DNA of 64,000 nt from Asparagopsis taxiformis (taxonomy: Eukaryota > Rhodophyta > Florideophyceae > Bonnemaisoniales > Bonnemaisoniaceae): NCBI GenBank assembly GCA_030407315.1, contig JALQPE010000232.1:86616-150615 (forward strand), given 5' to 3'. Made by a program: the position numbers and the translations under genes. Below are positions 40,501 to 64,000 of this stretch, in pieces (position 1 is the stretch's first letter; each line of letters starts with the position of its first letter). The notes beneath the pieces were generated by a model. The model worked only from the letters and a program-made list of their open reading frames with translations. It was not told where the DNA came from and did no database searches.

Positions 40501-41662
40501 TTCCTCGAGCCGTGAGAGTACTTACGGATATGAGTGAGAATACGAAGGAGGGGACGTGGAGAACGTCCTGGAGTATGCAGATTCTTGCCTTCCCATTCAC
40601 AAGGAGTGACAGTTTGACATCGCCACATCCTACTGCTACAGAAGTGGATTTGTCTCCGAGAATCACTTGGAACGGAGTCACGGAACGGTACGAGACAAAC
40701 ATTGAGCGATCGAAGGTCATGTGTGAGGTAGCAGCGGAGTCGATATACCATGTAGATGTGATTTGTACCGACTTAGCTGAATCCGAACAGGCTGACAAAA
40801 GGCAGACGTACTCCTTTTCTTCATCATTGCTCTGTTCAGTCTCAGTGGCTACGGCTGCCATAGAGCCAATATTCCCCTGCGCCAGAGACAAGTTCGGAGA
40901 ACTGCGTGGTTTATTATTCGAGCGGGAGCGAGATGGTCTTCCATACTTCTGCCAGCAATATGGCTCGGTGTGATTTGTTCGACCGCAATGGGTACACTTC
41001 TTCCGGTTGTTCCCAAACTGTTTTCCAGACTTGGAAAGTAGAGCGGCTGTGTCTGTTGAGGAACTTCCCGGTTTTAAAATAGCTGCCCTGCGTTCTTCCT
41101 GAAGGAGGAGACTGCGAACTTTGTCGAAGGTGAAGGTAGGATCTTCATCTCCAATTGCATCAAGAGCGGTTATCAGCGTCTGGAAGGAAGATGGGAGGCC
41201 ATTGAGAACAGCCATAGCCATTTCTTTATCATCAATGTCGACGCCCATTGCTGATAGTACCGTTGCCATTTGTCGAACACGGTTGATGTATACGAGCATC
41301 TGTTCACCTGGCTTCATAGTCGCTGTGTAAAAGTCGCGCCTTGCAGCGAGTTTGTTTAGGAGAGTGTGCCTTTGATGCACGTTGCAGATCTCTTGCCACA
41401 TTTCTAAGGCAGTCGTGGTGTGTGCAACATTTTTGAGCATTTCATCCGACAAGGTAATTCCGATGGCCATTCGAGCTGACTTGTCTTTGCGGAGCCATTT
41501 TAAGAGCTCTTCTTGGTCTGTCGGACGTCTAGGGCGAAGATTAGGATCAATCATGTCGTCCACCTCGCGGTGGCCAAGGATGAGTTCCATCTTCTGCTTC
41601 CATGAGTGGAAGTTTGAATAATCCAGCTTCTCGATGCGGATGCCGGAAGTATTACTCTCCAT
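37578..41662 (-). CDS. Copia 2 gag-pol polyprotein (one frameshift)
   Basis: ATG at 41662. Order: gag of the UBN2 type (KLDYSNFHSWKQKMELIL), CCHC knuckle (CTHCGRTNHTEPYC), protease (WYIDSAATSHMTFD), GAG-pre-integrase (LWHERLGHVHKNG and CEGCVTGKM), integrase core with D (LIHTDLAGPM), D (LRSDGGGEYF) and E (NGVAERMNRTL). Reverse transcriptase (YVDDLLIASS) and RNase H (YSDSDWGGC, SSSEAEYMAL and VDNQGSI) follow, ending in LLTKPL. A one-base loss near 39710, in a short C run at GCTCTCCCGCTGG, splits it into frames 41662-39560 and 39749-37578. No stop codons otherwise over ~1,360 codons. It is close to intact and lies inside the MULE protease gene. Confidence 0.9.
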
Positions 41663-41847
41663 GGCTCTGCAGTAAGTCTTATCTGTTCGACCCTTCCCAA
41701 GTGGACAACCGATAGTCGTCGAGGACCAAGCTGGGATCTATAGGATAGAGACTGTCTAGCTAAGAGCGAAGTGGATGGAGAACAAGAAAGCAAGGTTTAA
41801 CGATACGAAATCAGCTAGATTTCTAGTGTCTAGAGGAGAGAGAGAAA

Positions 41848-42615: not shown

Positions 42616-43031
42616 AAGAAATTTTTGTATTTGGCGCGAGATAGCTCCAGCAAATGATCCGATGTGTTCCAAGAGATGTCACTTGATGACGGAATTTTTG
42701 TGTCACGATGGCAGTAGATGTTGTCACTGTGACAGTCAGATGACACGATGGTACGCCGAGCGTCAGCGAGGCGTAGCCGAGGGGAGGCGAGACGGACGCC
42801 GGGTGGCGAGGCGAGACCGCGGCGCCGCAGGAGGGAGCGCGACGAACGCGACGCGCAGGCGAGCGAAAGCGCACGGAGGCGCAGAACGGGAGCAGGAGGA
42901 CGCGCAGCAAAGAAGACAAAACGAGAAGAAACAAGGCGAGAAAGGTAAGAGACACGCCAACGGGAAAGAGAGACTCACCGCAGCGCTAGAGAATAAGAAA
43001 CGACCCGAGCGAGCGCACTGGGCCCATAACC

Positions 43032-43519
43032 TGTTGATAAAGTTTGGTCGCTTACCGAGCGTTTACTGAATCTGCGAGCTCACTACATAATTTGTATTCT
43101 CGCCGAGGTGCGCCGGCGGTGCTAAGGACAGCCTGTTCAAGGCTGCTCCAGACAGACTGTCACTGACAGTCTGTCCTAGCAAGCACCCGCTGCCAATCTG
43201 GTACACGTGGGCTTCTCTATCATATCATCCACACGTGTACACTTATCATAACATTTTCCCTCTGCCATGATGGCAACCCATCTTGGCATTTCTAATTACT
43301 AATTGAAACTATGACAAACAAATTGAAACTTCAGAGGCCAGTTACTCCGTAATGGAGTGTCGTAGGAGCCCCGGAGAAGTTGCTACCCGACTAATTCGGG
43401 CACGCTGAATACGATGAGATAGGTTTCAGAGCGCTCAGACCACTCCTTCATAGAGAAATCGAGGGTCAAAGTTTTCTCACGGAATTAGGCCTACCAGGCC
43501 CATTCTCAGTGAGCCAACA
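43032..43519 (-). repeat. 5' LTR of copia 2
   Basis: 488 bp. GGTTATGGGCCCAGTGCG follows it on the element strand; TGGGCCCAGTG could be a primer-binding site but I do not recognise the tRNA. Confidence 0.9.
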
Positions 43520-44935
43520 GTTCCGAACTCCAAATCATCTTCGCTCTGAATACCGAAAACCGCACCCCAATGTCTTTGGTCGATGTTCACAGGAATTGCA
43601 AAAGAAAATGCGGCATTTCTATTTACCCAAGCATCAACCATGCTTTCTCGGATATTGCAATATAGTTCATCGGTTTCATCAAATTCTACATCTGCTGATA
43701 CATATTTGGAAGCGCCCCTCACGAAGAACTGCGCAGTATTGCTTCCGAAAACAATTGTGTTTTCTTTGAATTCATACTCGGCAAGACCGGCTAGAAGTAG
43801 ATGGTCTTCAAGCATCGTCTTGGGAATTGAGTGCTCAAACCATGGCCGAGCAGCATCGGAAGCCTGAAAAACTAGATCCAAAGCTTCCATATATTCCTTC
43901 ATTTTCTTACTCTCAGATTTACTCATGTTTTTAAGCCTGGACAGAACGTGAAAGAACTTCTTTACCTTGAAACTGCCTTTTTCCATTCTTTTGAAATACT
44001 GGGCGTGTGTATCTTCTTTGCCGAAGAAATGTTATACACTGTTTTTGTTTCCAAAACAGATGATTGATGCACATCAAAAGCAACGGCGGCTATTTTCAAT
44101 TCTCAGGTGCGATGCAGGATGTGAGAAGGGTCAGCTACGGAAACTTTCGTGTTTCGCTTCCTGAAAATGGGGATAGAAACAAATCGCTCGTGAATGAAGA
44201 AGAAGAACGCTACAGTTTGATCACTGTCTTCTTGGAAGATGTGCAAAACTATTGAAGCAAAAGGGCAGGCGCGAGAGAGGTGGTGCGAGGAGCAACAATG
44301 TTTGCTTGCAGTTGTGTCAGCGGTGCGTACTGTCAAAGAGACAGGCGGAAGAGATATGTCGCAGAGTGAAATGTTTGTTGGCAGCGATGCGCACTGCCGC
44401 GGCTCGAGATGTCAGTGCGGAGTGGGATGTGGTAAGGGTGAATATCTGTCGTGCCTCTGTGGACCGATATGGGGTTGGTACGGAGGTCCGCTCTTAGCGG
44501 GCCGTCGCGTTTGAATTGGGCGGGTGAAACTGGCGCCAATTTGCGGACGGGCGACAGCGGTGAAAGCTGGGAGTTTCGAATTAGTTTTCCCGATTTGAAA
44601 ACATGGACGACGAAAGTTGGGACCAGATTTCGATTTTGCAATTTCAATTTTGAAAATGAGGAAGAGCTTGGTCACGCCCGGTGCCGTCACGCAAAGTAGC
44701 CGAGTCGCGGATCCCCCTCAGAGGGGTTGTTTTGGGAGGTAAGGCTCTACGGTTATTTTTTGGGCTTTTTATGGAACAGCCAATAAGAAGCCGTCAAAAT
44801 GGAGGACGGGATGATCTGATTGGTTGAGATGCCAACGGTGGACGAGTTGCTGTGATTGGTCGAAATCGGCGGACCAGTTGCTCTGATTGGCTACCCTCTC
44901 TACCGGCGGTAGGAAAATCACTCCCCGTGTTTTAC

Positions 44936-45879: not shown

Positions 45880-47270
45880 ATGGGCTCCAACGCTACCCTT
45901 CCGTCCCGCCCGAAGTTTTCGTGGGATGTTCGGTCTGTCCCATGGACTGATGGAAAAGGTGATCAATCACAGTATGCAGGTGCTGTTGCACTATGGCAAC
46001 TTTTTCACAATGGCCTGCCGAAGAATAACTCCAATAAGATTCCGTTGAACTTACAAGGAATCATGCTGAAGTCTCAGCTTTTTGGTAGGGCGTTTGATTT
46101 TTGTCGACATGTATCGGATGATGTTATCCAGTCTGATGATGGTGTGGATGCTATCGTTGATGCAATCCACAAAAGAGATCCATTGGCTGTTATTGGTGAT
46201 GTTTATCAAGATTTCTTGGATGTTTTGAATGTTAAACGTGGTGAAAAGGAAAGCTTCAAGAATTATGAAGCACGTTTTGATGCTCATGTGAAGAAGTTTA
46301 ATTCTCATGCGGACTCTGCGCGACCTCCTGATGCGTTAGTTGCGTTTATTATGCTTGCTAATGATAAAGTGGATAGCGCTGAGCGATCGCTCAACTCGAG
46401 TTTCTGTGCTTGCTTCTGCTTCTCGCACAGAAGGCCTTACTTCCAAGTCTTCAACAGCAGACTTTTTGCAAGCTGTGTCTTACAGTTCGGTTGCGTCTGT
46501 AATCAGGCAATGTGATAAACCGGCTGGCTCTTCTTCTAGTGACAATGGAACACTTGTTGCTAATTATGTTTCTGTTGACTCACTGAGAATGGGCCTGGTA
46601 GGCCTAATTCCGTGAGAAAACTTTGACCCTCGATTTCTCTATGAAGGAGTGGTCTGAGCGCTCTGAAACCTATCTCATCGTATTCAGCGTGCCCGAATTA
46701 GTCGGGTAGCAACTTCTCCGGGGCTCCTACGACACTCCATTACGGAGTAACTGGCCTCTGAAGTTTCAATTTGTTTGTCATAGTTTCAATTAGTAATTAG
46801 AAATGCCAAGATGGGTTGCCATCATGGCAGAGGGAAAATGTTATGATAAGTGTACACGTGTGGATGATATGATAGAGAAGCCCACGTGTACCAGATTGGC
46901 AGCGGGTGCTTGCTAGGACAGACTGTCAGTGACAGTCTGTCTGGAGCAGCCTTGAACAGGCTGTCCTTAGCACCGCCGGCGCACCTCGGCGAGAATACAA
47001 ATTATGTAGTGAGCTCGCAGATTCAGTAAACGCTCGGTAAGCGACCAAACTTTATCAACAGTTTCTACATCGCGGCGCAAACAGCCTAAGTACAGAAAAT
47101 CTAAGCTTAGCCCGGAAGATTTTGCAGCTCTTAAAGCTAGAAGTAGGTGCCGCAAATGCCATATGATTGGTCATGGGGATTCTGACCATAACGCGGACGG
47201 CACTTACACACCGAGAAAAAACAATGAACGGTCTCCTACTTCTCATGGTGGTTTATAGAAGTCTGTCACA
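45880..47270 (+). pseudogene. Copia 3 gag, split by a solo LTR
   Basis: ATG at 45880 (MGSNATLPSRPKFSWDVRSV). Gag helices follow (DVYQDFLDVLNVKRGEKESF). A frame change near 46390 is followed by ASRTEGLTSKSSTADFLQAV. A solo LTR at 46573-47060 then interrupts, and the frame resumes with basic residues and a zinc knuckle variant (CRKCHMIGHGDSDH), the same C-x2-C-x4-H-x4-H type as in copia 1. Broken by the frameshift and insertion, so not functional. Confidence 0.7.
46573..47060 (+). mobile_element. Solo LTR of the copia 2 family inside copia 3 gag
   Basis: 488 bp, inverted relative to the copia 2 LTRs as drawn, starting TGTTGACTCACTG and ending TTTATCAACA. It is flanked by GTTTC on both sides (46568-46572 and 47061-47065). 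Confidence 0.95.
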
Positions 47271-49310: not shown

Positions 49311-50027
49311 ATGTTTCATCAAGCTCAATCGCTTCCGTCATATGTTCTTCAGAATGCTTACATGAAGGAGGAAAAGTCATTCAAGGAAACCGTACAGGTT
49401 ATTCATGTATCTAAGGTTCCTAAGCATGCAAACATTATTGCAAGTCATGTTCTATATAAGGTCAAAGTGCTAGACGATGGTGGAATGCTTGTGAAAGCAC
49501 GCATCGCTCCACACGGCAACAAAGATGCTGAGAAGTCTATGCTCAAGACTGATTCACAGACATGTCCGCCGGTTGGAATACGAATTTTACTCTCTATCTG
49601 TGTTTTACAAAAGTGGACACTTGCTAGGATTGATGTCAAGTCTGCTTTCCTTTAAACAGGTTCTTCACTAAGGGATGTATATGTGATCCCGCCACGCGAA
49701 TGTTCAAATCGTTCATTTTATTGGCTGTTATTAACCGCAGCTTATGGATTGGTTAACTCTAATGCCAAATGGCAGTACCATAGTGACTCTTTTATGAAAT
49801 CACTTGGCTTCTATCAACTAATCTATGTGCCTCAAATATTTTATATATCGGAGGATGGGAGTTTACAGATACTTGCTGTCAAGATTGTGGATGATATATT
49901 GCTGGCCGGACCGTTACCGCGCCTGCGTTCATTTGTTGATCGAATTGGAAACAAATACAAACTTGGAACTACGTCTGTGTTTTCGGAAGTGGACGCGGAC
50001 GTCCAGTCTCTCCAGTACGGGTCCTAG
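49311..50027 (+). pseudogene. Copia 3 reverse transcriptase, 3'-truncated
   Basis: Starts with the RT fingers (HVLYKVKVLDDGGMLVKARI) and DVKSAFL. A TAA replaces the expected Gln of SAFLQ, and the frame then continues with VIPPRECSNRSF and the catalytic IVDDILLAG (YVDD variant). It stops near 49985, where a GC-rich GGACGTCC palindrome region and tandem repeats begin. RNase H and the 3' LTR are missing. Confidence 0.7.
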
Positions 50028-50100
50028 TCGGCCCCGAGATTTACTAGAACAAATGAACGTCCGCGTCCAAAAAAAATAAAATTTTTTGGATGCGGACGTC

Positions 50101-50272
50101 CACTTTCTCTAGTACATATGGCGGAATACTAGGGCCCGACATCCACTTTCTCTAGTACGTTTGGCGGAATACTAGGACCCGACATCCACTTTCTCTAGTA
50201 CATATGGCGGAATACTAGGACCCGACATCCACTTTCTCTAGTACATATGGCGGAATACTAGGACCCGACATC
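50101..50272. repeat. 43-bp tandem repeat, four units
   Basis: Units start with CCACTTTCTCTAG at 50101, 50144, 50187 and 50230 (exact 43-base steps), with a few substitutions (GTACATATGG against GTACGTTTGG). They replace the end of copia 3. Confidence 0.95.
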
Positions 50273-50398
50273 CAGTATACAATATATCAGCGAAAACCGG
50301 GAGGGAAGAAATTATAGCGGATGGTAAATTCAGGGCCCATATCGGACCGTATTTTATTCTCTCATTTAGGAAACTGCTCGTATACAATACGTCTCTCT

Positions 50399-50540
50399 AG
50401 AATAGGGAATACATATCTGGTCAGAATAGGAAATAAATACCCGGTTAGAATAGGAAATACGTATCCAGCCAGAATACGGAATATGTATCCAGCCAGAATA
50501 CGAAATACGTATCCAGCCAGAATACAAAATATCTGTCAGC
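50399..50540. repeat. 24-bp tandem repeat, about six units
   Basis: Unit AGAATAGGAAATACGTATCC plus AGCC with variation. As 24 is divisible by 3 it stays open and would encode an 8-residue repeat (RIGNTYPA-like), but I see no gene context. Confidence 0.9.
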
Positions 50541-50889
50541 ATATCGTCGATCACCCATCTCCCTCACTATCGCGTTCTCCCTACCATCCGAACGCCATGC
50601 ACCACCATCCGCACATACTTCAAGAACCCTCACGACCTAGATTACAAAAAATCCGCTCCTTCCCAATTCCATCCCCGCTTTCCTCGACACCATCCCAGCC
50701 CATTAAATCATCAAGACATCAAACACGAACATGGTCAGCAAAATCTTACACGACTTGAAACCCACTCTCACTTCTATCGTATGCCCGAAAATATACACAT
50801 ACCAGAAACACCTCACAGCTTCATTCCCCATCTTCCTAGATCCCTTCTTCACTCTCCTTCAGTCCTGCCGTTCCTGCTTCACCACTCCT
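50541..50889. other. Low-complexity pyrimidine/CA-rich sequence, no gene
   Basis: Plus strand rich in C and A with many CCATC/CATC motifs; no domain-bearing ORF. Confidence 0.4.
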
Positions 50890-51920
50890 GCATCACATAC
50901 AAAACATCAACCCCAACAGTCAGATTCTAAAGCAACGCTTACCACGACAGATATCCTAGAAACTCCCTTACTTACCTCTCTGAGAGGATGAGTGAATCAT
51001 CCATCCTACACAAAATACAAACCATGATCCAAAAACCTTGCAATGAATAATCAAAGTCAGCAGTCCATATCTCCGCAAAACAAGTCTTGGTGCTCAGTGA
51101 AACTTACCTTCTGTCATCAACATTCCTGCATCATCTACACAACATCGGAATCAACCACAACAGTCAGACTCAAAACCAACCTTCCCTCACAGCATACTTT
51201 CAAAACTCGCACACTTACCTTCGCTCCACACAATACACACCATGACTCAATAGGCTTCCAATGAAAAATATCGCATCAACGGAAATAGTCAGACTCAAAA
51301 CCAAGCTTCCCTCGCTGCTTACTTTCAAAACTCGCACACTTACCTTACCTGTTCCATCCTGCACACAATAAAAACCATAAATCACGTAATCGTGTAGCCA
51401 AGAAAAGTAGTCAGCATTCCGCATCTTCGCACAACCGGTCTGGGCGCCCAATGTGACTTACCTTCCGTCATCACTATTCCTCCATCACCTACGCAACATC
51501 GGAATCAATCGCAACAGTCAGATTGAAAACCAACGTTTCCCTCGCTACATACCCTGAGAACTCGCAAATGTACCTCTCATCCATCCTACACACAATACAA
51601 ACCATGATCCAAAAACTTGCAATGAATAATAATCATAGTCAGCAGTCCGTCTCTTCGCAAAGCACATCTTGGCTCTCAATGAAACTTACCTTCCGTCATC
51701 AACATTCCTGCATCATCTATACAACATCAGAATCAACCACAACAGTCAGACTCAAAACCAACCTTCCCTCACAGCATACTTTCAAAACTTCACGTACCTC
51801 TCTTCCATCCTCCGCTCAATACACACCATCAGTCAACAGGCTTCCCATGAAAAATATCGCATCAACGGAAATAGTCAGACTCAAAACCCACGCTTCCCTC
51901 AACGCATACCCTCGAGGGTA
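50890..51920 (-). repeat. Degenerate ~115-bp tandem array carrying a regularly spaced splice-donor-like motif on the minus strand
   Basis: Related blocks recur, e.g. TCAACATTCCTGCATCATCT at about 51118 and 51702, and CAGTCAGACTCAAAACCAA repeatedly. CTTACC or GTACC motifs (minus strand GGTAAG/GGTAC donors) sit near 51102, 51206, 51337, 51456, 51568, 51684 and 51790, spaced 104-131 bp. Several lie just after a TAG/CAG-ended stretch, so each unit looks like a tiny exon (about 12-27 bases) plus an intron. No protein recognised. Confidence 0.5.
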
Positions 51921-51935
51921 GAGGATGGAACGAAG

Positions 51936-51973
51936 GTACGTGCGCGAATCTTGATCAAGATTCGCGCACGTAC
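51936..51973. repeat. 38-bp perfect palindrome
   Basis: GTACGTGCGCGAATCTTGA followed at once by its exact reverse complement, no loop. It lies between the tandem array and the small minus ORF. Confidence 0.95.
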
Positions 51974-51996
51974 AAAGCAAAGTCGGTCAAAGAAGA

Positions 51997-52122
51997 TCAG
52001 TCGGTGATGAGGGCGGAGTGGAGCCTGCGGCGTCGACCGGACAGCTTTCTGCGTCCGCTTAAGTCTTGCTGTGCATACTCGAAATCATCGCCGGCAGTGA
52101 GATTGAGTATGGCCCAAGCCAT
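51997..52122 (-). CDS. Small ORF (41 aa) or terminal exon, divergent from the Plavaka transposase
   Basis: ATG at 52122 to TGA at 51997: an acidic first half (NLTAGDDFEYAQQDL) and a basic tail (SGRRKLSGRRRRLHSALI). The same frame is open further upstream, so it could be the last exon of a longer minus-strand gene. The 38-bp palindrome lies just past its stop. No family recognised. Confidence 0.3.
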   Translation of the reverse strand: MAWAILNLTAGDDFEYAQQDLSGRRKLSGRRRRLHSALITD

Positions 52123-52574
52123 GGTCTCTGATTCCCCGAACAATGAGATCCGGATCGAGAACAACGAATATAAACATATAATCATATATATGAGAATCCA
52201 TTTGCTTTCCTTACATGATCCGTGGCATATCCGCTGTAAAGCACATTCAGATTCCACGAAGTTTGGAAATAAAAAAGTTTATTATTACAAATGAATTAAT
52301 TGAAAATTCATGTCCCAGGGCAGTCCTTCGTCCTTCCATGCACACGTTGCCAGCACGCAATGTGATGTAACAGTTGGAAATGATTGAACTCTCGGTTAAA
52401 TTCCACCGTTGGGATGTCAGCTGGAGTGAGCACAAAACTACTACCCACAAAACTACGAACGAACACGTTACATTCCAAGTCTCGAAAGCACCACAAAAAT
52501 AAAATTGGTCGCATCTGGACGGCACAGTCTCCCCTGTTCAGCTCGCAATCCTCCCTTTTGCGTCAAAACTCGAC
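52123..52574. other. Divergent upstream region of the Plavaka transposase
   Basis: No ORF with domain. It should hold the transposase promoter and possibly an element end, but I found no convincing terminal inverted repeat with the 56-59 kb side. Confidence 0.35.
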
Positions 52575-55500
52575 ATGGAATGCAAGTATGAAGGATGCTT
52601 CTACTACTGCGTAGATTCTTATGCGCTCGCGCTGCATGAGCGAACGTGTCGCTACCGTTTCAACCCCTCTCCCCAACATTTCAACAACGCTCGTGTCCCT
52701 GCCGTCACCCATGAGCCTGCTCGAAACGGCGACCATGATTCCCCGCAACCCAGCTCCCCAGACCCAGAATCTGGTCGTGCTTCCTCCAGCGACTCACCCT
52801 GTGACGCTCCATTGCCACCAACCTCAACCCCCTCCCGCGCAGACCTCCTCGTGCAATCCCTCGCCGCCAGTCTCACAACCCTCGAGTACAAGGCCGGCGC
52901 TGGCCGCGTGAGCGAAGTCATCACCATCCTACAAGACCCCGCATTCTCCCTAGAAAAGTTCAACAGCGCCGTTCGCACCGTAGAAGAATGTCGCCACGAT
53001 ACCGCTTCCATGGTCGAAACACATTTCCGCACCGAAGGTTACAAGAGCCACATCATTCCAGACAAAACTGGTAAGTACTCGGCACAGCTGTACCTCCGTG
53101 ACCCAGTCGACATGCTCCGCAGGCAGTTAGCACTGGCTAACGACCAAAATACTCTCTTCCACCCCTCCCCACAGACCGCCCCAGACGGCACCGCAATATT
53201 TTCTCATCCCCTACACACAGAATTCGCGAAAACGCTGCACCAGGTTTCTAGACAGCGCGTGCAGCTCTCGGAAGATCCACAGGTCGTATGGGCAGAGGAA
53301 AATGATCCCACCGCTTCCTCCTTTGCCGGCCTCCTCCAAGTGTACACCGACAAGAGCAGCACAAGCCTCAAGAGCTCCGCAATCGTCGCATACCCCATAC
53401 ACGTCACACTGCTCAACTTCTCCGCCCCCCTCCGTCGCCACTGCATCCGTACCGGCCTCACCATCGTCGGGTATCTTCCGTACATTGTGAACCCTTCGTC
53501 CAACGCCTTGTTCGGTGATGAAATGCCGACAACCTCTAGTTCTGCTAGTCGCGCTCGCAAAATTGATATTCTTCATAAAGCACTCGAAAAAGTGTTTTCG
53601 TCCCTATCCACCGCGTTCTCTTCCGGGTTCCCCTGCACAGACTCCACTGCAACTGCCCGCCAATGCTTTCCCATCCTAGCCAATTATTGCTGCGACTTTC
53701 CAGAGGCCAAAGAGCTGTCATGCACTCGCAACAGCACTACCACCACACATCCCTGCCACCGCTGCTACATCCCCGCCACTCAACTTGAATCCAGCGCGCC
53801 ACACCAGCCCCGCTCCCTCGATGATACACGCTCTGCACGCCAAGAGAGCGCTCAGGAGCATACAACTGCTCCGCTCGAAGCTCTCTCCCTCCTCGAACAA
53901 CACTCTGTCCTCGAATCGACCGCTCTTTTACCCACCAACAGTCCCCTAGACCCCTACAACATTTTCTCCTTCGAGCCTCTGCACAATCTCCACCTCGGCA
54001 TCTCAAAGCTCATCAAACAGTGCATTGTCCACCGCCTCAGCTCCCCAGACCTCACCACCACCACTGCCTCCCATTCCGGGACACCTCGCACCTTCAAGAA
54101 GGTGAAAAAATCCATCCTCGCCGGCTCAAACAGCATTCTGTCCGCTATCGAACGCGACTACTACATCACCGGTCTTCATGTCGACTTCTCCAAGGGTGAG
54201 AAGGGCACCAATTTGAACGGCCTCTTCACGGAGGACGGCATACGCGGCATGCTCGCAGCCAAAGACTATCACCATGTCGACATGGTGTTCCCTTTCATCG
54301 CAGCATTCATTGACACATGCTGTGACGAAGTAGAGACAGCCCCCCTCACTTCCATCTGAACGCAATACTCTGACCTCGTCGCATGGGTCATGAAACGCGG
54401 TCGCATCAAGCACTGGACTGCCGCCGAACTAGAAAGCCTCCAGAACTCCATTTCCTATTTCAAACAATCAATGCTCTCCACCCTCGGCCCATTCCACACC
54501 ACAGGTCTCAAAACTTTCAAGTTCCATCTTCTAGACCATCTTCCCGGTGACTTGCAGAGATATGGCGCCCTGGAACACATCGATGCAGGCCCCTACGAAC
54601 ACTCCCATCTTCTGTTCAAACAGAGTTATAGGAAAACCTCTCGAAGGCGCTCCACAGCCATGGAAGAGACTATTCGCCACATGGAATTCTCCTTGGCCAC
54701 TCCAACTGGTCACACCCCATCCAACACATTGGGAAACCCACGCATGATATCGCCCACAGACGGTGCAGTACTCGTTCGCGACGGATTCACCGTTGCACTG
54801 CACGACTTTGCCTCCCTGCTGCCCGATGCAACCCTCCTCGTTGCAGATATCGACGGACAGCCCGATCCTGCCACTCTTTTGCCTCTGCACAACTCCTCGT
54901 TCCCGTCTGCCACCATAACGCTATTCCAGCAACTCGGTGACACAGCTGCACAAGCGTTCCTCACCCTCGCTAGACTGCGCGCCACGGCAGAAGGCCCTCC
55001 AATACATGACATGGACATTTCCGTCACCGTGGTAAAGTCCGCCTACGTCATGGGAGGGTACGTCCCAGATGCCGACGACTTTGACCCGCACAGTGGCATG
55101 CTTCGCCCCACAAACGTGTCGAGGCACAAGCAGCAGCGCGTCTTTGCAACTTCATCGTTCGGCCCCGCAAAGAGATCGCAGTACTCCTTTGTCGTCATCT
55201 CCGGAACTGCCGATGACTACAGAACCATATGGGTAGGGCGCGTCCTGGCACTGGTACGCCTGCAGTCTCCAAACCTGTTTCAACCTGTAGAACTCGCTTT
55301 CGTTCAGTATATGACCTGCTTTGCCCCAAAAACCGCTGTGGAAAAATCACTTGGGTGCATTTGTTTAAAGTGGTCCACATGGGACCCGGACAACGGATCC
55401 GTTGACAGCAATGACACTGCATCCCACAGTGCAGGTGGTCCTTGGTTTGACCTCATTCCTGCATCTACTATATCTGGCACCGTGCACATCGTACGAAGTA

Positions 55501-55616
55501 ACTTTCCAGTCAAGCCATTTACGAAACAAATGCACTGGTCGGACCACCGTTTCTATCTCAACCGCTTCTACACCAACACTGATTACCAGTTCACAGATGA
55601 TAATGAAGAAGAATAA
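52575..55616 (+). CDS. Plavaka-type (CACTA-related) transposase with one internal TGA
   Basis: ATG at 52575 starts with a C2HC-like finger (CKYEGCFYYC and then HERTC). A Pro/Ser-rich linker follows, then the Plavaka-like core: LLQVYTDKSSTSLKSSAI with AYPIHVTLLNF, the counterpart of the family's YSDKT..GYPV segment. Later come FSFEPLHNLHLGISKLIK (the D-x-LH-x-L-x-G region), FKFHLLDHLPGDLQRYGA and then an EHIDAGPYEHSHLLFKQSY block. A TGA at 54357-54359 cuts codons 1-594 from the remaining ~419, but the frame is the same before and after it. A CGA-to-TGA change at a CpG would explain it. Length (~1,013 codons) is normal for the family. A convergent gene follows. Confidence 0.7.
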
Positions 55617-55693
55617 ATCTAAATCGCAGCACTCTATTGATAATGTACTACATGATAAACCTTCTAGTCAACGTCACATTTACTGCACTAATT

Positions 55694-58645
55694 TCAACCA
55701 TCCTCCATTACGCCAAAACCGTTATCAGCAGTGGCTGCATGGCGCCGCTCCATGCCCCCATACTGTGGGGCATTGATTTCGACATTCAGGTTTGCACTCA
55801 GGTGTCCAGCATATGGGTCAACGACGAAAAGTTCTGCGCCAATTAGTCCTTGCGCAATCACACAATCCATTACAGCACCGAGGTTTGACGTAATATGCGA
55901 TTGAATCCTATCCTCGGACACTAGAACAAGTGATGAGCAGCGGTTTACATCATCAACGACATGAACAATTCCAGACCCCTCTCCGCTTTGCCACACTTCA
56001 ACAGCCTCTCTCGTCACAGTACGGCTTGCAAACACATGCCGTGACTGTGCACTAGTCCGCTGTTCGCTCTCGACAACGTCCGTTTCTTCCCTTGCTTGCG
56101 AGCCTTGGAGACAAGACATGCAGTACACCACCATACCAACTAATTGCTGAAAAGCTACCCCCACATATTGACTGTACCGCCTTGTAAACTCCTTCTGCCG
56201 TGCACCTCCTTTCCCCTTCGGTTCATCCAAACACTCCACAGTAGTCACTAGCCAAGCATCCAGGCGCGCCAGCGTTAGTATGCTCGTCTCTATGTCCATT
56301 ACTTGTTCTGGTCGTATCGAATAACCCCTGAAGATGTCCAGCACATTCACAGCTACTCGGTTGTTAAACCATGCATCACCATTCACTTCCATTTCGAAGC
56401 TGTCAGGAACCATGCCTTTGCTGTATCGCAGCTCTGAGAACGGTGCCGTTCGCCACCTCCCCATATCCAAATCACCGTTGCTTTCCCGTTTCAAAAGCTT
56501 CTCAGACGCTTCGCGCTTTTGATCCTCTCGCTCGTCCATCTCAGCTCGCGTCGTCAGCATCGTGCATCTAGACATTAATTTCGTGTACCCCAGCGAACCG
56601 AACAATCTGTCCCTCGCATTACGCTTCCGTGCACTCATCACGTCGGACAGTTTCTGCGTCACCTTCACTTTCAATCCTTGCTCCCCGCCACAGCCTCTTG
56701 ACAGCACACACGCTGCTCCTCATCGGAAAACACATCACACCACGGACTTTGACGCAGTACGTGTCGCACCAAGTCATTCAGCAGATCACTCTCGTCCCTG
56801 TACGAAGGTGTATGTGGAACGATAGTTCGGTGACGAAGTAGCTGGTACGAGCTAGGGGACACGCTGTCCTTACGACGAAACGAACGAACAGTCCACCCGC
56901 TGGTGTTTTGACTGTATGTTAGGTAGAACGGTAGAGATAGGTTAGCGAGTAGACACGAGCGTCACGACGCAACAATCCACGCGAGGATTACGTTAGCAAA
57001 CGAGGTGGTACGTCACCGGAGGCGCTCTCAACCAAGTCCGGAGGCACTACACGCAATCAGCCTTACGTGCGGCGATGGGTAGGGAGTACGCAGCTCGACG
57101 GAGAGGAAGCCTCGCTAGGCAAAACGTAAACGTAAACGTAGAAGTCAGTCGTAGACTAGAGCCGTTGCTCGTTCCATGAATTGTCCCCTTTCCCTCCCGG
57201 CACGATGCCAATACCTATATGGCCACGATGGCATCGCTTTACAGTGTAAACACTGCTCGTAACGTCCCCGAATGGGAAAGGACCTTGTGGGTCGCACGTA
57301 GGGACCCGTTGGTCCGTTGGCCGTTGCCAATACGTTCGTTGCACTCGTGTGCCGGTTGCGTGCGCGCATGCGCCAGCAATGTTCGTGCATTGCTGTCGCC
57401 GGTCGTATCCGCCGAAATTCGAATTCCGCGGAAAACGTAAATATTTGCAATTTCGGACTTGCCACGTATACTACAGTGTATACCACTGCAGATTCTTGAT
57501 GATATAGCCCGGAGGGGTAGCAATATATCCTACACCGTTTTCGCTCCAAAGTGTCCCTTCTACCGGCTCTACCTCGATGGTACGTCCAGTCCAACGTCTC
57601 TGCGTTTGTTCCGCTATAGGGTCCAGCTCCATAGTCTCGTTCTTGCACCACTTTGTCAGGTTTTCCTCGACCGCCCTAAGAACTCCAAGGTATTTCACAG
57701 GAATGGCTTTCTGTATTTTCGACTTACCGCCACCGTGATCACTGATTCTACCTGTTCTCGCAATTGCAGTAAGGCTGGCATTTTCCGCCTGCAGAGTCTT
57801 CACCTTAGCCTCCAACGCAACTATCTCCGTGGTGAGCGCCTTGTTTGCTATGTCCTGGCTAAACACTTTTTTTTCCAGCTCCGCGATCTTCTTCTTCTGC
57901 GCATTGATGCGACTCGCCATTAAATCGATGGATTCCGGCGGATGCAACCTCTCTGCCCTCACCGTCCCCCATCTCGCACGCTATCGGGATTATGATGTCC
58001 TCCATCGGCAATAGCCTGACGTCGCGGGGGCGTTACGCGCATATTTGGCACCAATGACAGTCTGTTGTGACGAGGCCCGCACTCCGGCTGCTCTCTCCCC
58101 TCAGTACCACCTGACCGCCGATGATAGTTGGCATCCTGTGAACGTTGCTCAGAAACAACATCCCTTGCCGCTATCCTCGGGTCCCTGACTGCATTACCTG
58201 CTGGGGCTGATGTACTCGGCATAGTTGGCGCAGTGGGGGTCACAGCCTCCAGTGTCTCGGGAACCCCCGGCTGGGACTCCGTCTGCAGCACCTCGGCATC
58301 TGCCAACCCGGGAGGAACTACCTTTGCCATAGCACTCTGCCGCAATTCCAACATGTTTTGAGCCACTATCATGTCATCATCATGATGTTCACTGTCCCTG
58401 CGAGCACGCTTGCCTCGGTCAAGCCCCATCTCTCTCCGCGCCGTTCCTCCTTCCTCACTTTCTCGCTGCGGATCCCCAGTTCTGCGCCGGTCCGTCTTGC
58501 GACTACCGGACCGCGGTTCAATGCTGCCGGTAGGCCCAGACCGCTTCTTCGCACGGGATTGTCGGGCACTCGATACAGCAGCTGCTGACCGGTTTTTCTG
58601 GAGGCCCGGAGGCTTTGGAGCTTTCTTCGCAATACGCGGCGGCAT
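55694..58645 (-). pseudogene. Coiled-coil protein gene facing the Plavaka transposase, split by a solo LTR and two frame shifts; family unknown
   Basis: Four minus-strand pieces join in order. 58645-57959 is a basic disordered N-terminus (MPPRIAKKAPKPPG) with an acidic middle. 57962-57481 has a heptad coiled coil (RINAQKKKIAELEKKV and KALTTEIVALEAKVKTLQAE) and then a PPGYIIKNLQWYT segment. Across the LTR comes 56812-56671 (PSYRDESDLLNDLVRHVLRQ). Then 56707-55694 (RKRNARDRLFGSLGYTKLM, DAWFNNRVAVNVLDIFRGY, EFTRRYSQYVGVAFQQLVG) is helical with a few Cys. Pieces 1 and 2 overlap at GTGA by a one-base shift at a G5 run; pieces 3 and 4 shift near GGATTGAAAG. It may be the second gene of the Plavaka element or a host gene. 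Confidence 0.5.
56813..57475 (+). mobile_element. Solo LTR (family C, 663 bp) inside the coiled-coil gene
   Basis: Starts TGTGGAACGATAG, ends CGTATACTACA and is flanked by GTGTA on both sides (56808-56812 and 57476-57480). Second copy of the family seen at 7910-8579. Removing it joins the coding frame at LQWYT-PSYRDES. Confidence 0.95.
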
Positions 58646-58877
58646 AATGAAGCCTTCCCGGAAGCGATGGAACGATTGAGTTGCACGAGATACAAAAAAG
58701 ATTGCTGTATAGTGTCGGTAACCACAACGGTCTGCGATGAACGTTCAGGTCAGGTCAAGTACCGGAGAATACGCCAACAGCCCAGATTGTATACGGTAGG
58801 CAGTCATCAACAGTATTTAATGAGGTACAATTACAGCTGTCGAGCTAGGCCGCGAGCACCCCTATGTCCGGAAGACG
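58646..58877. other. Promoter region between the coiled-coil gene and the methyltransferase element
   Basis: 232 bases without ORF; no clear motif. Confidence 0.35.
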
Positions 58878-59059
58878 TCCTGATTTGAATTAAAATTTGG
58901 GCTATTCTCAAAAACATGCACATGTGAACATGTTTTTGAGATGGGGTGTGCCGTACGGCACAATCGACCCGCTGAAATCGATGTTTTTTGCAATATTTTT
59001 TTCTGCCCTGAATTGTAGAATTTCTGGGCTGGACAGCAATGCAACTGAGCTGGACATCC
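58878..59059 (+). repeat. Left TIR of the methyltransferase-SET element
   Basis: Begins TCCTGATTTGAATTAAAATT. It contains CATGCACATGTGAACATG and the 16-base perfect palindrome TGTGCCGTACGGCACA (58947-58962), then GCAATATTTTTTTCTGCCC, and ends GAGCTGGACATCC. About 90% or more identical to the right TIR. Confidence 0.9.
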
Positions 59060-59304
59060 ACCGGGCGTCCATTTCAACTTGGTCTTGTATTTTGCATCTG
59101 CACGCATAACAGCAACCAAGCAGTCAGGTTCACTGCTCGGACGAAGTGCACCTAGAGTGTGAACGATTGGTTTTTGACAGGCGAGTACTGCTCAATAGGT
59201 TTCACCCTGGACTAATGGTGGCTGGACATGCTGCATTATATGATATACTTCAACTCTGGAACGTAGCTTTATTTGTAGTCGAAATGAAAACATCTTTCGT
59301 GACC

Positions 59305-59832
59305 CTAATTCCATGCTCTAAACGCTGTCCCATAATGAACGTAGAGCTCCTGCCCTGGACGGATATCGCGGATTGCACGTACTACAATGATCTTCGGATT
59401 TTCTAGGTCCTTCGCCTTGAGCTTCTTCCCCGTCGAACCGCTGCTGTAGTTCTCGACAAACTCGACGTTGGCCATCCGCCTGGTGTCTTCCGCCGGAGTG
59501 TCCTCACCTCGCAAATACCGCGGGTCGTTGATGAACTGCGCCGAACAGAACGGAGCCGGAACAATCCAAATTGGATGCTCGATGTTTTCGTCGTCCTCCG
59601 CTGTTGCATACAGCTTGATGGCATACATCAAGAATGTTTCCTTCGTTATCGCCATGTGACCCTCTCCGTACGCGAACCTCATCGACTCCTTGCTCATATC
59701 AGAGTACACAACAGTTCCGTAGTATGCACATACTTCGTCGCCAACATTAAATGTCTGTTCAGCGAAGAGCCCTCTTCCTGCATTTGGATGCTTAATCAGC
59801 GATGGTCGAACGCTCAATTTTTCGCGCAACAC
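59305..59832 (-). CDS. SET-domain protein, frame-shifted extension of the methyltransferase
   Basis: 176 codons ending in TAG. SET-domain landmarks are in order: HPNAGRGLFAEQTFNVGDEV (the G-x-G-L-F-A entry), VCAYYGTVVYSD, APFCSAQFINDPRYL (in place of R-x-x-N-H-S) and RDIRPGQELYVHYGTAF (the E-L-x-x-x-Y-G end). There are no pre-SET or post-SET cysteines. SET proteins methylate lysines, mostly on histones, in the nucleus. No ATG begins the domain: the first codon is a TTG inside the methyltransferase end, so translation most likely comes as a fusion by frame change, or the genome carries a one-base insertion. Skipping one A gives a single ~1,065-residue protein. Confidence 0.8.
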   Translation of the reverse strand: MLREKLSVRPSLIKHPNAGRGLFAEQTFNVGDEVCAYYGTVVYSDMSKESMRFAYGEGHMAITKETFLMYAIKLYATAEDDENIEHPIWIVPAPFCSAQFINDPRYLRGEDTPAEDTRRMANVEFVENYSSGSTGKKLKAKDLENPKIIVVRAIRDIRPGQELYVHYGTAFRAWN

Positions 59833-62503
59833 AATCGTGTGCCCGCATCACGCGAGGGTTTTCAGTTTGCAACCAGCGGCGCAGGGAAGGTGGCCAATAA
59901 TGTACCGGTTTTTCCATGTGCTCGTGCGACGCAATCGACTCTGGGCACAGCTGCCAGAGGTACTGCCGAATATATTTCGGGAACCTCTGGTACAGGGGAA
60001 GGCCAGGTGGGGGTTCGATGATCCTGCGTTCCCTCTGCGTACGCATCGTGACAGAGGGGGACGCCAAGAACTTCTCAGCACTCTGTTTCGCTTCTGTCGT
60101 GACCCTCATGTCAGTGTTGTTTGAAAGAATTACACGTGACATGACTGCACACAGCTTTGGAAGCGATCGTGCCACACACAATTTGTCCATGTCACTGCCG
60201 ACGAAAACACGGTGCTCAGGCAAGCTCATAGCTGCTTTTCCCGTTGCGAAAGTGCCAGAGAATGGATCGACAACAATATCACCAGGCTGTGAATGCTGGC
60301 TGATCAACTCCATCATGAGAGCGACGCTCTTCTGCTCTGCACGAACTCTGACCGTAGCACCGGTTGTGCTCCTTGTTCGCCACACCATCTCATTCGAATC
60401 GATGGCGGGCATATTGATGGTGACGTTGCACCACGCCGGGTACGTGCCGTCCATGTATCCGTGGTTCCTATAGGCCACCATCTCGCTTCCAGTCTTGAAC
60501 GGAACACCTCGCTTCCAGAAGTGGATAGCGACCTCTGCCATGTTCATGCGTTGGTACCTCTTCCGCCCCGGCATTTGATAGAGGTGCCCAGGTAGTCGGA
60601 CAAACAACAGAGGTACCTCGTCAACGAAGAAAACTGAATTCCGAACGACGTCCTCCTCGTCCTCGTCCTCCTCCTCATCCGCACTTTCTTCGCCACTGTG
60701 CTGCGATGCTTCGGAGTCCGAATTCATGGACGTAACCTCTTCTTCATCCGACCCGTCATCACTGGCAGCAGCATCGGTTGGGCCTTCTGACTGCGGTCCT
60801 TTGTACGTTTCCAAGTAATGGAACCATTCGTAGAACTGCAAAACGGAGCAGAACACGATGCCGTGGCCACCGGGGCGCAACAGCTCGTCAAACACTTCGA
60901 TGCTAGCCTGCATATCTTCTGCAGTTAGCCTGTCGTACGAAGAGTTGGAATCGTTCCTCTTACGACGAACATTGTAGGGCGGATCAGTCAGAATGAGCTG
61001 AACGTTGCCCGTGATGGGCACGTGTTCTCGGCTCTCGTCGGCACTGACCAAATCTTCGAAAGGGACGTCGTACACCCGGCAATACTGACTCATTTTCGAA
61101 AGAAAGTCCTTTGCGAGAGCCTGCCCTTCACTTTCCTGCTCTTCTGTCGCATGGGGTGACGGTGACGGGGGAGACGGCCCTTGGGCAGTAAGACTGGTCC
61201 TCCCAGGTCCAAGTTGAAGCCTGGTTGTGTGTCTTGTCGACGGAACCAAACCTCTCCCTCCTGTGTTGCGACGAGTGGGAGTGTCATCAACCGGCTTGGG
61301 GACCTTTTCTGCGTCCGCGGCTTGTGGTGCCGGGCGGAGGACAGCCATAACGTCTTCGTCGAGGGTGTCAAAGTACGCTGGCAGCTTGTCCGGATTTCCG
61401 CTTGACAAGTATATTTCCAGCGCCCCCCAGCGGTCGGACTCCGGCCAGGTGTACAGGTCCGGGTTGACGATAAGAAACTGCAACCGGTCGAAGAACTTCC
61501 TCACAAGGTCCCTAAATGCACTGTGCTGCGCACTGGTTCTTGTCTCTACTTTTCCACCATATCCATCAGGATGAGATAGGGGAGCTTTGTCGTGGTAGAG
61601 ATCTAGCTTCTGCTCCATCGGTGCGAATAGACCTTCATCGAGCACGTCAAACCAATGCTCACTGCTGTCGAAAATGATGTACGGCGCCATCAACTCTTCG
61701 AAGCTGGAAAACTTTGCGGCGAAGGCCACATCGGTCCAAGCATGGTATAAAACTTGAACCACGTAACAAGCTCGATTAGTGCTTTTCCGATGGGCTGGGA
61801 CGCGTGCGGCTTCGTTCCCCTCTTCGGCCGCGTCGCCTATTCGGCGACGCGGCAGGTTCTTGTTGTGATTTCGGATGATAGACAACGCTTGGAAATACAT
61901 CAATACCTCGAACGTTTCCGGTGGAGCAAGAACGAAGGCGCTTGGTTCCCCGCGCTGCGGCGCCTGTAGTGGCGAAGGAAGCATGTTACATCCAATAAGG
62001 AAGGTCTGCGGCACGATCCCAGAAAGGATGCAGTGCTCAACCCATTGCCCGATACGCTCATCCTGTCTTGAAAACTCGGCAATCGGTAATGCCAGACGAA
62101 CAATCTGCTTGGCTCGCTCAACGTTCATCTCTGCCATGACGATTTCGGCAACATCCGCCTCGACTCCAGCATTCTTCGAACGACCGCTGAAGGCCATGCT
62201 GAGTCGACCTTGCAGCGCCAGAAATTGTTCTTCTGTGCCCTGCGCAACCCAAGCGCCAAGGTCCGCGTATGTGAAACCTCCCGGCTTGTCCGTCAAGTCT
62301 GCGAAACTTGAGTGGGCGAACAAATCCAGCAAGAGGCGGAGGAAGTCTTTGCCAGCGAGAGTAGTTTCGCGGGCGGCGCGACCTACGTTTCGACGTGTAC
62401 CCATGTCACTAGAATCCTCCCAAGGGCTAGCGGGTTCGCGCAGAATTGGCACGGTTGCGTCGTCAACGATCGGATTGCTGTTGCGCCTGCGCTTATTCGT
62501 CAT
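59792..62503 (-). CDS. Beta-class N6-adenine/N4-cytosine DNA methyltransferase with large N-terminal region (903 aa)
   Basis: ATG at 62503. Residues 1-450: mostly helical region of unknown fold, basic start (MTNKRRRNSN). The methyltransferase shows motif IV VQLILTDPPYNV (DPPY at 507-510) before motif I IVVDPFSGTFATGKAAM (746-750), the permuted order of beta-class amino-methyltransferases (N6_N4_Mtase). Between them lies a target-recognition region with an acidic run (582-619). DPPY enzymes methylate the exocyclic amino group of A or C using S-adenosylmethionine. This family is rooted in bacteria and phages, so the gene probably reached eukaryotes by transfer. There are no introns and no internal stops. 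It ends in TAA, overlapping the SET ORF by 41 bases. A single extra A in an A5 run (59818-59822) separates the frames. Confidence 0.85.
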   Translation of the reverse strand: MTNKRRRNSNPIVDDATVPILREPASPWEDSSDMGTRRNVGRAARETTLAGKDFLRLLLDLFAHSSFADLTDKPGGFTYADLGAWVAQGTEEQFLALQGRLSMAFSGRSKNAGVEADVAEIVMAEMNVERAKQIVRLALPIAEFSRQDERIGQWVEHCILSGIVPQTFLIGCNMLPSPLQAPQRGEPSAFVLAPPETFEVLMYFQALSIIRNHNKNLPRRRIGDAAEEGNEAARVPAHRKSTNRACYVVQVLYHAWTDVAFAAKFSSFEELMAPYIIFDSSEHWFDVLDEGLFAPMEQKLDLYHDKAPLSHPDGYGGKVETRTSAQHSAFRDLVRKFFDRLQFLIVNPDLYTWPESDRWGALEIYLSSGNPDKLPAYFDTLDEDVMAVLRPAPQAADAEKVPKPVDDTPTRRNTGGRGLVPSTRHTTRLQLGPGRTSLTAQGPSPPSPSPHATEEQESEGQALAKDFLSKMSQYCRVYDVPFEDLVSADESREHVPITGNVQLILTDPPYNVRRKRNDSNSSYDRLTAEDMQASIEVFDELLRPGGHGIVFCSVLQFYEWFHYLETYKGPQSEGPTDAAASDDGSDEEEVTSMNSDSEASQHSGEESADEEEDEDEEDVVRNSVFFVDEVPLLFVRLPGHLYQMPGRKRYQRMNMAEVAIHFWKRGVPFKTGSEMVAYRNHGYMDGTYPAWCNVTINMPAIDSNEMVWRTRSTTGATVRVRAEQKSVALMMELISQHSQPGDIVVDPFSGTFATGKAAMSLPEHRVFVGSDMDKLCVARSLPKLCAVMSRVILSNNTDMRVTTEAKQSAEKFLASPSVTMRTQRERRIIEPPPGLPLYQRFPKYIRQYLWQLCPESIASHEHMEKPVHYWPPSLRRWLQTENPRVMRAHDCVARKIERSTIAD

Positions 62504-62852
62504 AATGGAATGAGTGGAAATTCGGTACAGGATGGCGACCGCTCGGCGAGACAGTCAAATTTGACGACGTATCTCGTGACGTTTGCACTCTTTCGTGAGG
62601 AACACTGGTTGATATCGAACGGAACAGAGTATACGGGTACACAGCACTGAAAGGTCTTGAAACCCGTAACCGGTGTAGGTAATAAGTTGTGACGGATACG
62701 TGGTAGAGAAAAATTTTAAAAAGATTGTGATTCCCTGTCTTTGAGGGTTGTACTGCACGGCCGCCATGGCGGCTGTGACTGCAGTCACATAGGTTGTCAC
62801 AGGTGCATCACGCTTACCAGGTGAGCGACATCCGGACGGCCACTGGACATGG

Positions 62853-63033
62853 GGATGTCCAGCTCAGATGCATTGCTGGCCAGACCAGAAATTCTACAAT
62901 TTCGGGCAGAAAAAAATATTGCAAAAAACATCGATTTGGGCGGTCGATTGTGCCGTACGGCACATCCCCATCTCAAAACATGTTCACATGTGCATGTTTT
63001 TGAGAATAGCCCAAATTTTAATTCAAATCAGGA
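62853..63033 (-). repeat. Right TIR of the methyltransferase-SET element
   Basis: Inverted partner of the left TIR, with the same palindrome at 62949-62964. Differences are single bases and one- to three-base indels. Confidence 0.9.
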
Positions 63034-63319
63034 TGCAGATATTCGTCTTCTAGCATTGTCAGAACACATTCGTATAACCACATTTGGAGAACCTGAGCCC
63101 AGAGCTATCGGTTTTGGCGGGAGCTAAGCCATATCTCATATAATCAGTAACTACTTCCCGCCAGCTGAGTGGTGGAACCCCTGCTATTTCTACCAACGAG
63201 ACATACGGGGTGTCAACTCGGCAATCGTATATGATTTGGGTGCTAAATTTATTCAAGAGACGAATGGGCTTCGAAAAGGAGCCCAACAACGTCTTCTTGT
63301 GATCCATGGGTATAGGACT
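63034..63319. other. Unassigned flank of the methyltransferase element
   Basis: No coding domain; the minus frame here continues from the glycine-rich repeats. Confidence 0.3.
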
Positions 63320-63600
63320 ACTCTATTCTTCTCCAGGCTTCCACCATAGCCTCCTCCACCACCTCCGTTAATGGATCGAATATCCGAACCGCATCTCACA
63401 TGTTCTCCACAGGCTTCCACCATAGCCTCCTCCACCTCCGTTAATGGAAAGAATATCCGAACCGGACCTGAACATGTGTTTCTTCTCATCCATGGGTACT
63501 GACATCTCACATGTTCTCAACATGTGAGATGTCAGTACCGGAGAAGTTCTCCAGGCTTCCTCCGTAGCCACCTCCTCCACCTCCGTCTGTGGGAATCAAC
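63320..63600 (-). repeat. Glycine-rich coding-like duplicated module with hairpin
   Basis: On the minus strand each unit reads SINGGGGGGYGGSLE-like, repeated about three times with the block CTTCCACCATAGCCTCCTCC on the plus strand. Either exons of a Gly-rich (cell-wall-like or RNA-binding) protein or a simple duplication. No full ORF found. Confidence 0.45.
63495..63539. repeat. 45-bp hairpin with perfect 21-base arms
   Basis: GGTACTGACATCTCACATGT plus T, loop CTC, then the exact reverse complement. It falls within the glycine-rich repeats. Confidence 0.95.
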
Positions 63601-63618
63601 ACACATCACCACTGCGTC

Positions 63619-63876
63619 TTACCTCACATCCACATCTCTCCGGGATGAAAACGGACGGACGACATAGGGTTTGTAGACGTTTAGAATCTTGTTAGAAAAA
63701 AGTAAACGAAAGAGAACTTCTCCTTTCATTGAATGATATCTCGTCCCTGTCGCAATATGTTCCATTTTCATTTTCTCGGGTTGCACACCCATCATGGTGA
63801 TCAAGGCCTGGATCGAACCCTCCGAGGGTCTTCGATGGATAGGACAGATAGTGGAAGGCTTTAAGCCTGTGACCAA
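63619..63876 (-). other. Coding-like minus-strand ORF, not recognised
   Basis: 85 codons (GSIQALITMMGVQPEKMKME, then a basic tail ending RPFSSRRDVDVR). Possibly an exon upstream of the glycine-rich modules. No family found. 63877-64000 shows nothing. Confidence 0.25.
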
Positions 63877-64000
63877 GCGGCTATTGATTGGTTGGAGGAA
63901 GGAAATTACAGAGGAAATATAGCTGAGTACGGTGCTCGCGATAGCTGTTAGGTTAAAGTCAAATATGTGTTTCGATATTTTTCGTACGGAAATGCCTTGG

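What the first reader, a model, noticed from the sequence alone, without database searches (positions are those of the whole stretch)
58878..63033. TIR-bounded element encoding a DNA amino-methyltransferase plus SET domain and no recognisable transposase
Seen: 182-bp inverted repeats enclose only two ORFs, a beta-class DPPY methyltransferase (DPPY before DPFSG) and a SET protein. Known: these two enzyme types write DNA 6mA/4mC marks and histone-lysine marks. Inference: a mobile unit that marks its own chromatin on both DNA and histones, for silencing escape, replication timing or target choice. I do not recall a described TIR element with this pair, though I could not search.
Basis: partly seen in the sequence, partly recalled or inferred. 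Interest (0 to 1): 0.93.

Follow-up and report, generated by a model that had tools for sequence, protein, structure and literature searches.

The report
Giant transposon carrying dual DNA-histone methyltransferase
The two enzymes are really one gene, a fused DNA methyltransferase and histone-type methyltransferase, carried in at least dozens of near-identical copies by a 20-kb jumping element that does have its own transposase, so the element may write its own chromatin marks.

Summary
The inverted repeats and both ORFs are real, but the unit was misread. The 182-bp repeats are not ends: 20 of 20 fetched loci share the left flank, and six repeat copies lie inside one ~20.4-kb element. That element has 33-bp terminal repeats (CGTCTG..CAGACG), a 2-bp target duplication (2 of 2 copies with both ends read) and a Plavaka transposase (PF18759, E 3.9e-24). 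In the window it starts at 49972 and runs off the contig end. The DPPY methyltransferase and SET ORFs are one ~1065-aa gene: frameshifted in the window copy, open in 49 of 49 other best-scoring copies, intact in 8 of 16 copies read directly. The fusion is old: 11 relatives at 27-37% identity. A second transposon family (CACTAC end, at least 40 identical copies) has a ParB-like-MTase-SET fusion and a separate HxD..H protein homologous to part of ORF4 of the first element. Likely function, inferred only: accessory self-marking of element chromatin. ParB-MTase accessory proteins of algal transposons are in print; I found the SET fusion in no paper I could search, but a key paper was not held. Verdict: new variant of a known kind.

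The parts
49972..64000 (+). Giant Plavaka-type transposon, left ~14 kb; the right end is missing because the window ends where contig C232 ends (150615)
   Evidence: (window = C232:86616-150615, contig length 150615)
49972..50004 (+). Left terminal inverted repeat CGTCTGTGTTTTCGGAAGTGGACGCGGACGTCC
   Evidence: 9 left ends seen in 8 different flanks
52575..55613 (+). Plavaka transposase gene, one in-frame stop (54357-54359) in this copy; 1037-aa open frame (counted stop to stop) in 44 of 44 best-scoring copies
   Evidence: (PF18759 on the homologous L030:3293-6403)
55697..58645 (-). Accessory ORF2, unknown function, coiled-coil-like (sub-threshold Pfam hits only); interrupted in the window by an about 663-bp insertion near 56814-57475
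58878..59059 (.).
58948..58961 (.). Perfect 14-bp palindrome GTGCCGTACGGCAC inside the repeat, invariant in the six copies of the complete element
59305..62503 (-). MTase-SET fusion gene, frameshifted in the window copy at about 59827
59329..59778 (-). SET domain
   Evidence: (PF00856), alignment
60182..61003 (-). Beta-class DNA amino-methyltransferase domain (DPPY before DPFSGT)
62853..63033 (.).
62950..62963 (.). Second copy of the palindrome GTGCCGTACGGCAC

Best explanation
This is one gene of a giant (about 20.4-20.9 kb) Plavaka-type cut-and-paste DNA transposon. Shown: own TIRs, 2-bp target duplication, intact transposase frames, near-identical copies, conserved fused MTase-SET protein. 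Inferred: the transposase moves the element; the MTase-SET protein is a trans-acting accessory factor that binds element DNA and writes N6-methyladenine (less likely N4-methylcytosine) on the DNA and methyl-lysine on nearby histones, keeping copies transcribable or transposable despite host silencing. Inferred with less support: it acts with the ORF4-type partner (ParB-like plus HxD..H oxygenase-like), perhaps loaded at the palindromic repeats between the genes.
For: Left flank of the 182-bp repeats shared by 20 of 20 loci; nine true left ends in 8 different flanks, TSD GA/GA and AT/AT in the 2 copies with both ends in hand. Plavaka Pfam E 3.9e-24; PF18759 scored at 123 places in the genome, 0 of 14 control genomes. 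Transposase and MTase hits share a contig in 9 pairings; 8 of 9 lie 3531-3534 bp apart on opposite strands. Fusion frame open in 49 of 49 other scored copies. P0002-P0012 are 27-37% identical over the MTase-SET part, 8 of 11 with both Pfam domains; N992/D993 and Y1057/G1058 of SET invariant in 12 of 12, DPPY in 10 of 12. Fold matches M1.HpyAVI, CcrM and rotifer N4CMT, and SUV4-20/MLL1 for SET. Amino-acid changes below neutral expectation: 79 N and 47 S against 92 and 34, ratio 0.62, one-sided binomial p 0.007.
Against: No methylation, expression or binding data. Only 8 of 16 full copies read directly have an intact MTase-SET frame; the 49 of 49 and the 44 of 44 transposase frames are best-scoring places, so biased to intact ones (in the family search frames range from 328 to 1089 aa). 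The N/S test is modest and pools broken copies. One relative (P0006) has SPPR and one (P0009) DPPF for DPPY. Termini CGTCTG..CAGACG match neither published Plavaka type. The oxygenase-like reading has no Pfam, PHROG, NCBIfam or PDB match and an unusable model. ParB-like in ORF4 rests on a pairwise E of 0.03. The right end was found in only 1 of 4 further right-end windows.
Confidence: 0.6

Rival explanations
1. One reading: a 4.2-kb element bounded by the 182-bp repeats, holding only MTase and SET, without transposase.
For: The repeats are real and inverted around the gene. In 4 of 16 copies the right flank differs at the repeat.
Against: 20 of 20 loci share the left flank and 12 of 16 copies the right junction; six repeat copies lie within the larger element; transposase and true ends found.
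Confidence: 0.02
2. The MTase-SET protein restrains rather than protects: it silences the element's own copies (copy-number control) or rival elements that insert into it.
For: SET and DNA methylation can both silence; rotifer N4CMT with SETDB1 silences transposons (PMC8885841, abstract and passages). CACTAC-ended elements interrupt copies of the first element.
Against: Both families show many near-identical, apparently recent copies, which argues against strong self-restraint.
Confidence: 0.2
3. Passive cargo: the gene was captured and rides along without benefiting the element.
For: Half of the 16 copies read directly are broken; most accessory genes of giant Ectocarpus transposons are of unknown function (PMC12477816, passages).
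Against: Catalytic residues largely conserved across 12 divergent proteins; N/S below expectation; a homologous gene in a second transposon family.
Confidence: 0.12
4. A fossil or derivative of a DNA virus that modified its own DNA.
For: Amoebidium adintovirus insertions carry Dam methyltransferase (PMC11244446, passages).
Confidence: 0.04

Closest known systems
Sola1-1_Ec32 of Ectocarpus (PMC12477816, passages), ParB-like + N4/N6 MTase accessory protein
   Same: Giant (21.5 kb) DNA transposon; 1104-aa MTase gene on the strand opposite the transposase; authors propose that such proteins bind and modify their own element; [quoted passage not shown]
   Different: Sola-1, not Plavaka; the passages I read name no SET domain and no oxygenase-like partner
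Giant EnSpm elements of red algae (Petroll 2025, as cited in PMC12477816; paper not held)
   Same: Giant EnSpm elements with multiple accessory genes (cited passage); that they are Plavaka is recalled
   Different: Could not read it; whether SET fusions are described there is unknown to me
Giant Plavaka repeats of Amoebidium (PMC11244446, passages)
   Different: Many of the genes are tyrosine recombinases; 'SET domain' does not occur in the main text
TET/JBP-carrying DNA transposons of fungi, including Plavaka (PMC12730594)
   Same: DNA transposons, some Plavaka, carrying a DNA-mark enzyme
   Different: TET/JBP dioxygenase instead of amino-methyltransferase plus SET; PlavakaB ends CATCA..TGATG
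SET-carrying HarbingerS and MuDR of Phytophthora (as cited in PMC12730594)
   Same: DNA transposons carrying a SET histone methyltransferase
   Different: Other superfamilies; no DNA methyltransferase fusion mentioned in that passage
Rotifer N4CMT (PMC8885841; PDB 8s9m-8s9o)
   Same: Beta-class (permuted) bacterial-type amino-MTase in a eukaryote, tied to histone methylation
   Different: Host gene, SPPY, chromodomain instead of SET, silences transposons
DNMTs in retrotransposons of dinoflagellates and charophytes (PMC5890265, abstract and outline)
   Same: Transposable elements that encode DNA methyltransferases
   Different: C5-cytosine enzymes in retrotransposons

Membership tests
Plavaka DNA transposon | Plavaka transposase domain PF18759 | tested here: met
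   E 3.9e-24, 85.9 bits, cut-off 26.3
Plavaka DNA transposon | 2-bp (or 2-3 bp) target-site duplication | tested here: met
   GA and AT, 2 of 2 copies with both ends in hand
Plavaka DNA transposon | Termini TGT..ACA (PlavakaA) or CATCA..TGATG (PlavakaB) | tested here: not met
   CGTCTG..CAGACG against PMC12730594 section 3.2.2; those types come from fungi, so I call this Plavaka-type, neither A nor B
Plavaka DNA transposon | DDE catalytic triad in the transposase | not tested
   residues not mapped
Beta-class DNA amino-methyltransferase (N6_N4_Mtase) | PF01555 with DPPY preceding the AdoMet motif | tested here: met
   fold to M1.HpyAVI and CcrM
Beta-class DNA amino-methyltransferase (N6_N4_Mtase) | Methylates DNA (6mA or 4mC) | not testable with these tools
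   needs an enzyme assay
SET lysine methyltransferase | PF00856 with the Asn and Tyr motifs | tested here: met
   N992, Y1057 in 12 of 12; SUV4-20, MLL1; the roles of these residues are recalled
SET lysine methyltransferase | Histone substrate | not testable with these tools
   needs an enzyme assay
2OG-Fe(II) dioxygenase (ORF4 C-part) | Recognisable fold or family match plus HxD..H | tested here: inconclusive
   HxD and H shared by two divergent homologues, pairwise E 2e-17; no library match, model unusable; motif name recalled
ParB-like domain (family 2 N-terminus) | Match to a ParB family | tested here: inconclusive
   PHROG ParB-like partition protein E 0.003; phrog_4272 (unknown function) E 1.7e-5; no Pfam hit in that part

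The most novel reading that the evidence does not exclude
Two transposon families with different ends share a three-part marking system whose parts are reshuffled between them: a ParB-like module (fused to an oxygenase-like domain in the Plavaka element, to MTase-SET in the CACTAC-ended element), a single-chain writer of DNA and histone methyl marks, and an oxygenase-like enzyme that alters or removes a mark. The palindromic repeats between the genes would be loading sites, so the element paints its own chromatin from fixed entry points.
Probability: 0.27. Interest if true: 0.88.

Novelty: new variant of a known kind. Interest (0 to 1): 0.62.

Why it matters
It would be a natural single-chain coupler of DNA amino-methylation and histone methylation, amplified by a transposon to at least dozens of near-identical copies, and so a direct test bed for whether 6mA/4mC can act in eukaryotic chromatin. 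It also shows how a wrongly bounded repeat hides a giant transposon, and suggests that the same accessory genes pass between transposon families.

Tried and rejected
Rejected: the repeats as element ends; two separate genes; a transposase fold in residues 1-450: the N-terminal part is predicted mostly helical, and the 50 PDB matches shown, of 706, are described as DNA or RNA methyltransferases or SET proteins, none as a transposase. I did not search that part alone.

A first estimate of 15.8 kb for the element (notes) was corrected to about 20.4 kb once further right flanks were fetched.

Right-end windows of four further copies: end found in 1 of 4. Petroll 2025 (two look-ups) and Iyer 2014 are not held; Iyer 2011 was not tried by id. 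PMC6431247 (one passage) has no occurrence of Plavaka, ParB or SET domain in its main text.
Full report
What the window holds. The window is the last 64 kb of contig C232 of an unnamed 141.5-Mb, 3156-contig assembly. The reported 182-bp inverted repeats exist (173 of 183 columns identical) and enclose ORFs with N6_N4_Mtase and SET domains.

One gene, not two. P0001 (source ENA) is a 1065-aa protein, 98% identical to the window ORF, carrying both Pfam domains. In the own genome, 50 places were scored of 3803 first-look candidates; one is the window itself, and the other 49 all match query residues 1-897 in an open frame of 1082-1100 aa. These are the best-scoring copies, so they favour intact ones. 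Among the 16 repeat-to-repeat copies read directly (15 loci plus window), 8 are intact, 7 have one or more frameshifts (the window has one, at the MTase/SET junction) and 1 has only an in-frame stop. The three copies with ten or more frameshifts (L009, L017, L020) may partly reflect alignment or assembly error.

The repeats are internal. I fetched 20 of the 39 other places that one search lists as near-full-length matches of the left repeat; one search scored only 40 of 1778 candidates. All 20 share the left flank. At the right, 12 of 16 full copies have the same junction; L014, L020, L026 and L028 start in other sequence. L014, L026 and L028 rejoin element sequence further on, as expected if recombination between repeat copies removed the piece between; L020 reaches the end of its contig. 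The complete copy c559 has six repeat copies, one in one orientation and five in the other, all outside the main ORFs, with an invariant palindrome GTGCCGTACGGCAC.

The real element. Joining adjacent stretches of contig C559 gives both ends at 802 and 21174 (20.4 kb), with 33-bp TIRs differing at 2 positions (read off). In contig C1833 the ends lie about 20.9 kb apart (from the coordinates). Nine left ends lie in 8 different flanks (C559 and C2665 share one). Both copies with both ends in hand show a 2-bp duplication, GA and AT. Right ends were sought in four further windows and found in one. The window copy starts at 49972.

Genes of the complete copy: (1) transposase, 1037 aa stop to stop, Plavaka PF18759 E 3.9e-24; 44 of 44 best-scoring copies open at 1037 aa; PF18759 at 123 scored places with frames of 328 to 1089 aa, 0 of 14 control genomes. 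(2) ORF2, function unknown, coiled-coil-like by sub-threshold Pfam hits. (3) MTase-SET. (4) ORF4, broken in c559; its C-part is found at 91 scored places at 98% identity or more, in frames from 477 to 1450 aa, the commonest 1364, one with an in-frame stop. Transposase and MTase hits occur together on a contig in 9 pairings, 8 at 3531-3534 bp on opposite strands; the ninth pairs a different copy on the same contig.

The MTase-SET protein. Eleven relatives at 27-37% identity over residues 480-1065; 8 of 11 have both Pfam domains precomputed, and the other three align over the SET region too. The search scored 7992 candidates sharing most words. DPPY in 10 of 12, DPPF and SPPR in one each; the SET Asn-Asp and Tyr-Gly pairs are invariant in 12 of 12. 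PMC8885841 (passages) gives DPPY for bacterial N6-adenine and SPPY for most bacterial N4-cytosine enzymes, so 6mA is the better guess. The AlphaFold model (mean pLDDT 71, pTM 0.40, 12-sequence alignment) matches M1.HpyAVI, CcrM, rotifer N4CMT and, for SET, SUV4-20 and MLL1. Pooled single-codon differences of the fetched copies from c559 give 79 non-synonymous and 47 synonymous against 92 and 34 expected, one-sided p 0.007: modest support for selection on the protein.

A second family. At C421 another element, starting CACTACGGTGTTGA, interrupts a copy of the first (one side of the insertion was read). It encodes 1155 aa with a weakly ParB-like N-terminus (PHROG E 0.003), MTase (E 2.3e-16) and SET (E 4.2e-6), 23% identical to P0001 over 947 columns. 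40 of 40 scored copies are 100% identical with an open frame. A neighbouring 403-aa ORF is homologous to the ORF4 C-part (pairwise E 2e-17) with shared HxD and H. So the ParB-like part seems joined to the oxygenase-like part in one family and to MTase-SET in the other, which suggests joint action; both labels stay weak. The far end, target duplication and transposase of this second family were not obtained.

Prior knowledge. [quoted passage not shown] PMC12730594 (outline, passages, two sections) describes TET/JBP on DNA transposons and cites SET on HarbingerS and MuDR. PMC11244446 (passages) describes giant Plavaka repeats. PMC8885841 was seen as outline, abstract and passages, PMC5890265 as outline and abstract, PMC6431247 as one passage. 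My ten literature searches listed no paper that I could identify as describing the MTase-SET fusion on a transposon; two of the lists were cut (15 of 83, 15 of 5534). Petroll 2025 and Iyer 2011 could well describe it, and I could not read them. That Petroll 2025 concerns giant Plavaka elements is recalled. A red-algal host is a guess from that recollection, not tested.

Conclusion. The self-marking mechanism is inference.

Noticed in passing
L023/L048/L049/L050 (C421:2800-18278): CACTAC-ended second transposon family with ParB-like-MTase-SET fusion, at least 40 identical copies, interrupting the Plavaka element; transposase and far end not found.
   Followed up: partly
L024+L034 (C406), join 10759-17273: Another CACTAC-ended insertion with an unnamed 1288-aa ORF (33% identical over 468 columns to a 479-aa ORF in the C603 insertion); no Pfam match; 35-bp tandem repeats next to it.
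   Followed up: partly
own genome, PF01555 search: 150 scored N6_N4_Mtase places of 2605 candidates, apparently several groups (recurring open frames of 943, 1106, 1161 and 1186 aa), so more MTase-carrying families probably exist.
   Followed up: no
window 37095-37583, 43031-43519, 46573-47061: About 490-bp repeats 97% identical to a piece of L031, which look like LTRs of a young retroelement.
   Followed up: no
window 37581-41737 and 13465-15063: ORFs that by eye resemble Copia polyprotein and PiggyBac transposase; not tested.
   Followed up: no
window 31726-32745, 35122-37143, 43480-44031: ORFs sharing identical stretches of sequence with each other (by eye), protease-like by eye.
   Followed up: no
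window 56814-57475: About 663-bp insertion in ORF2 absent from the four other copies compared, similar by eye to window 8264-8812.
   Followed up: no
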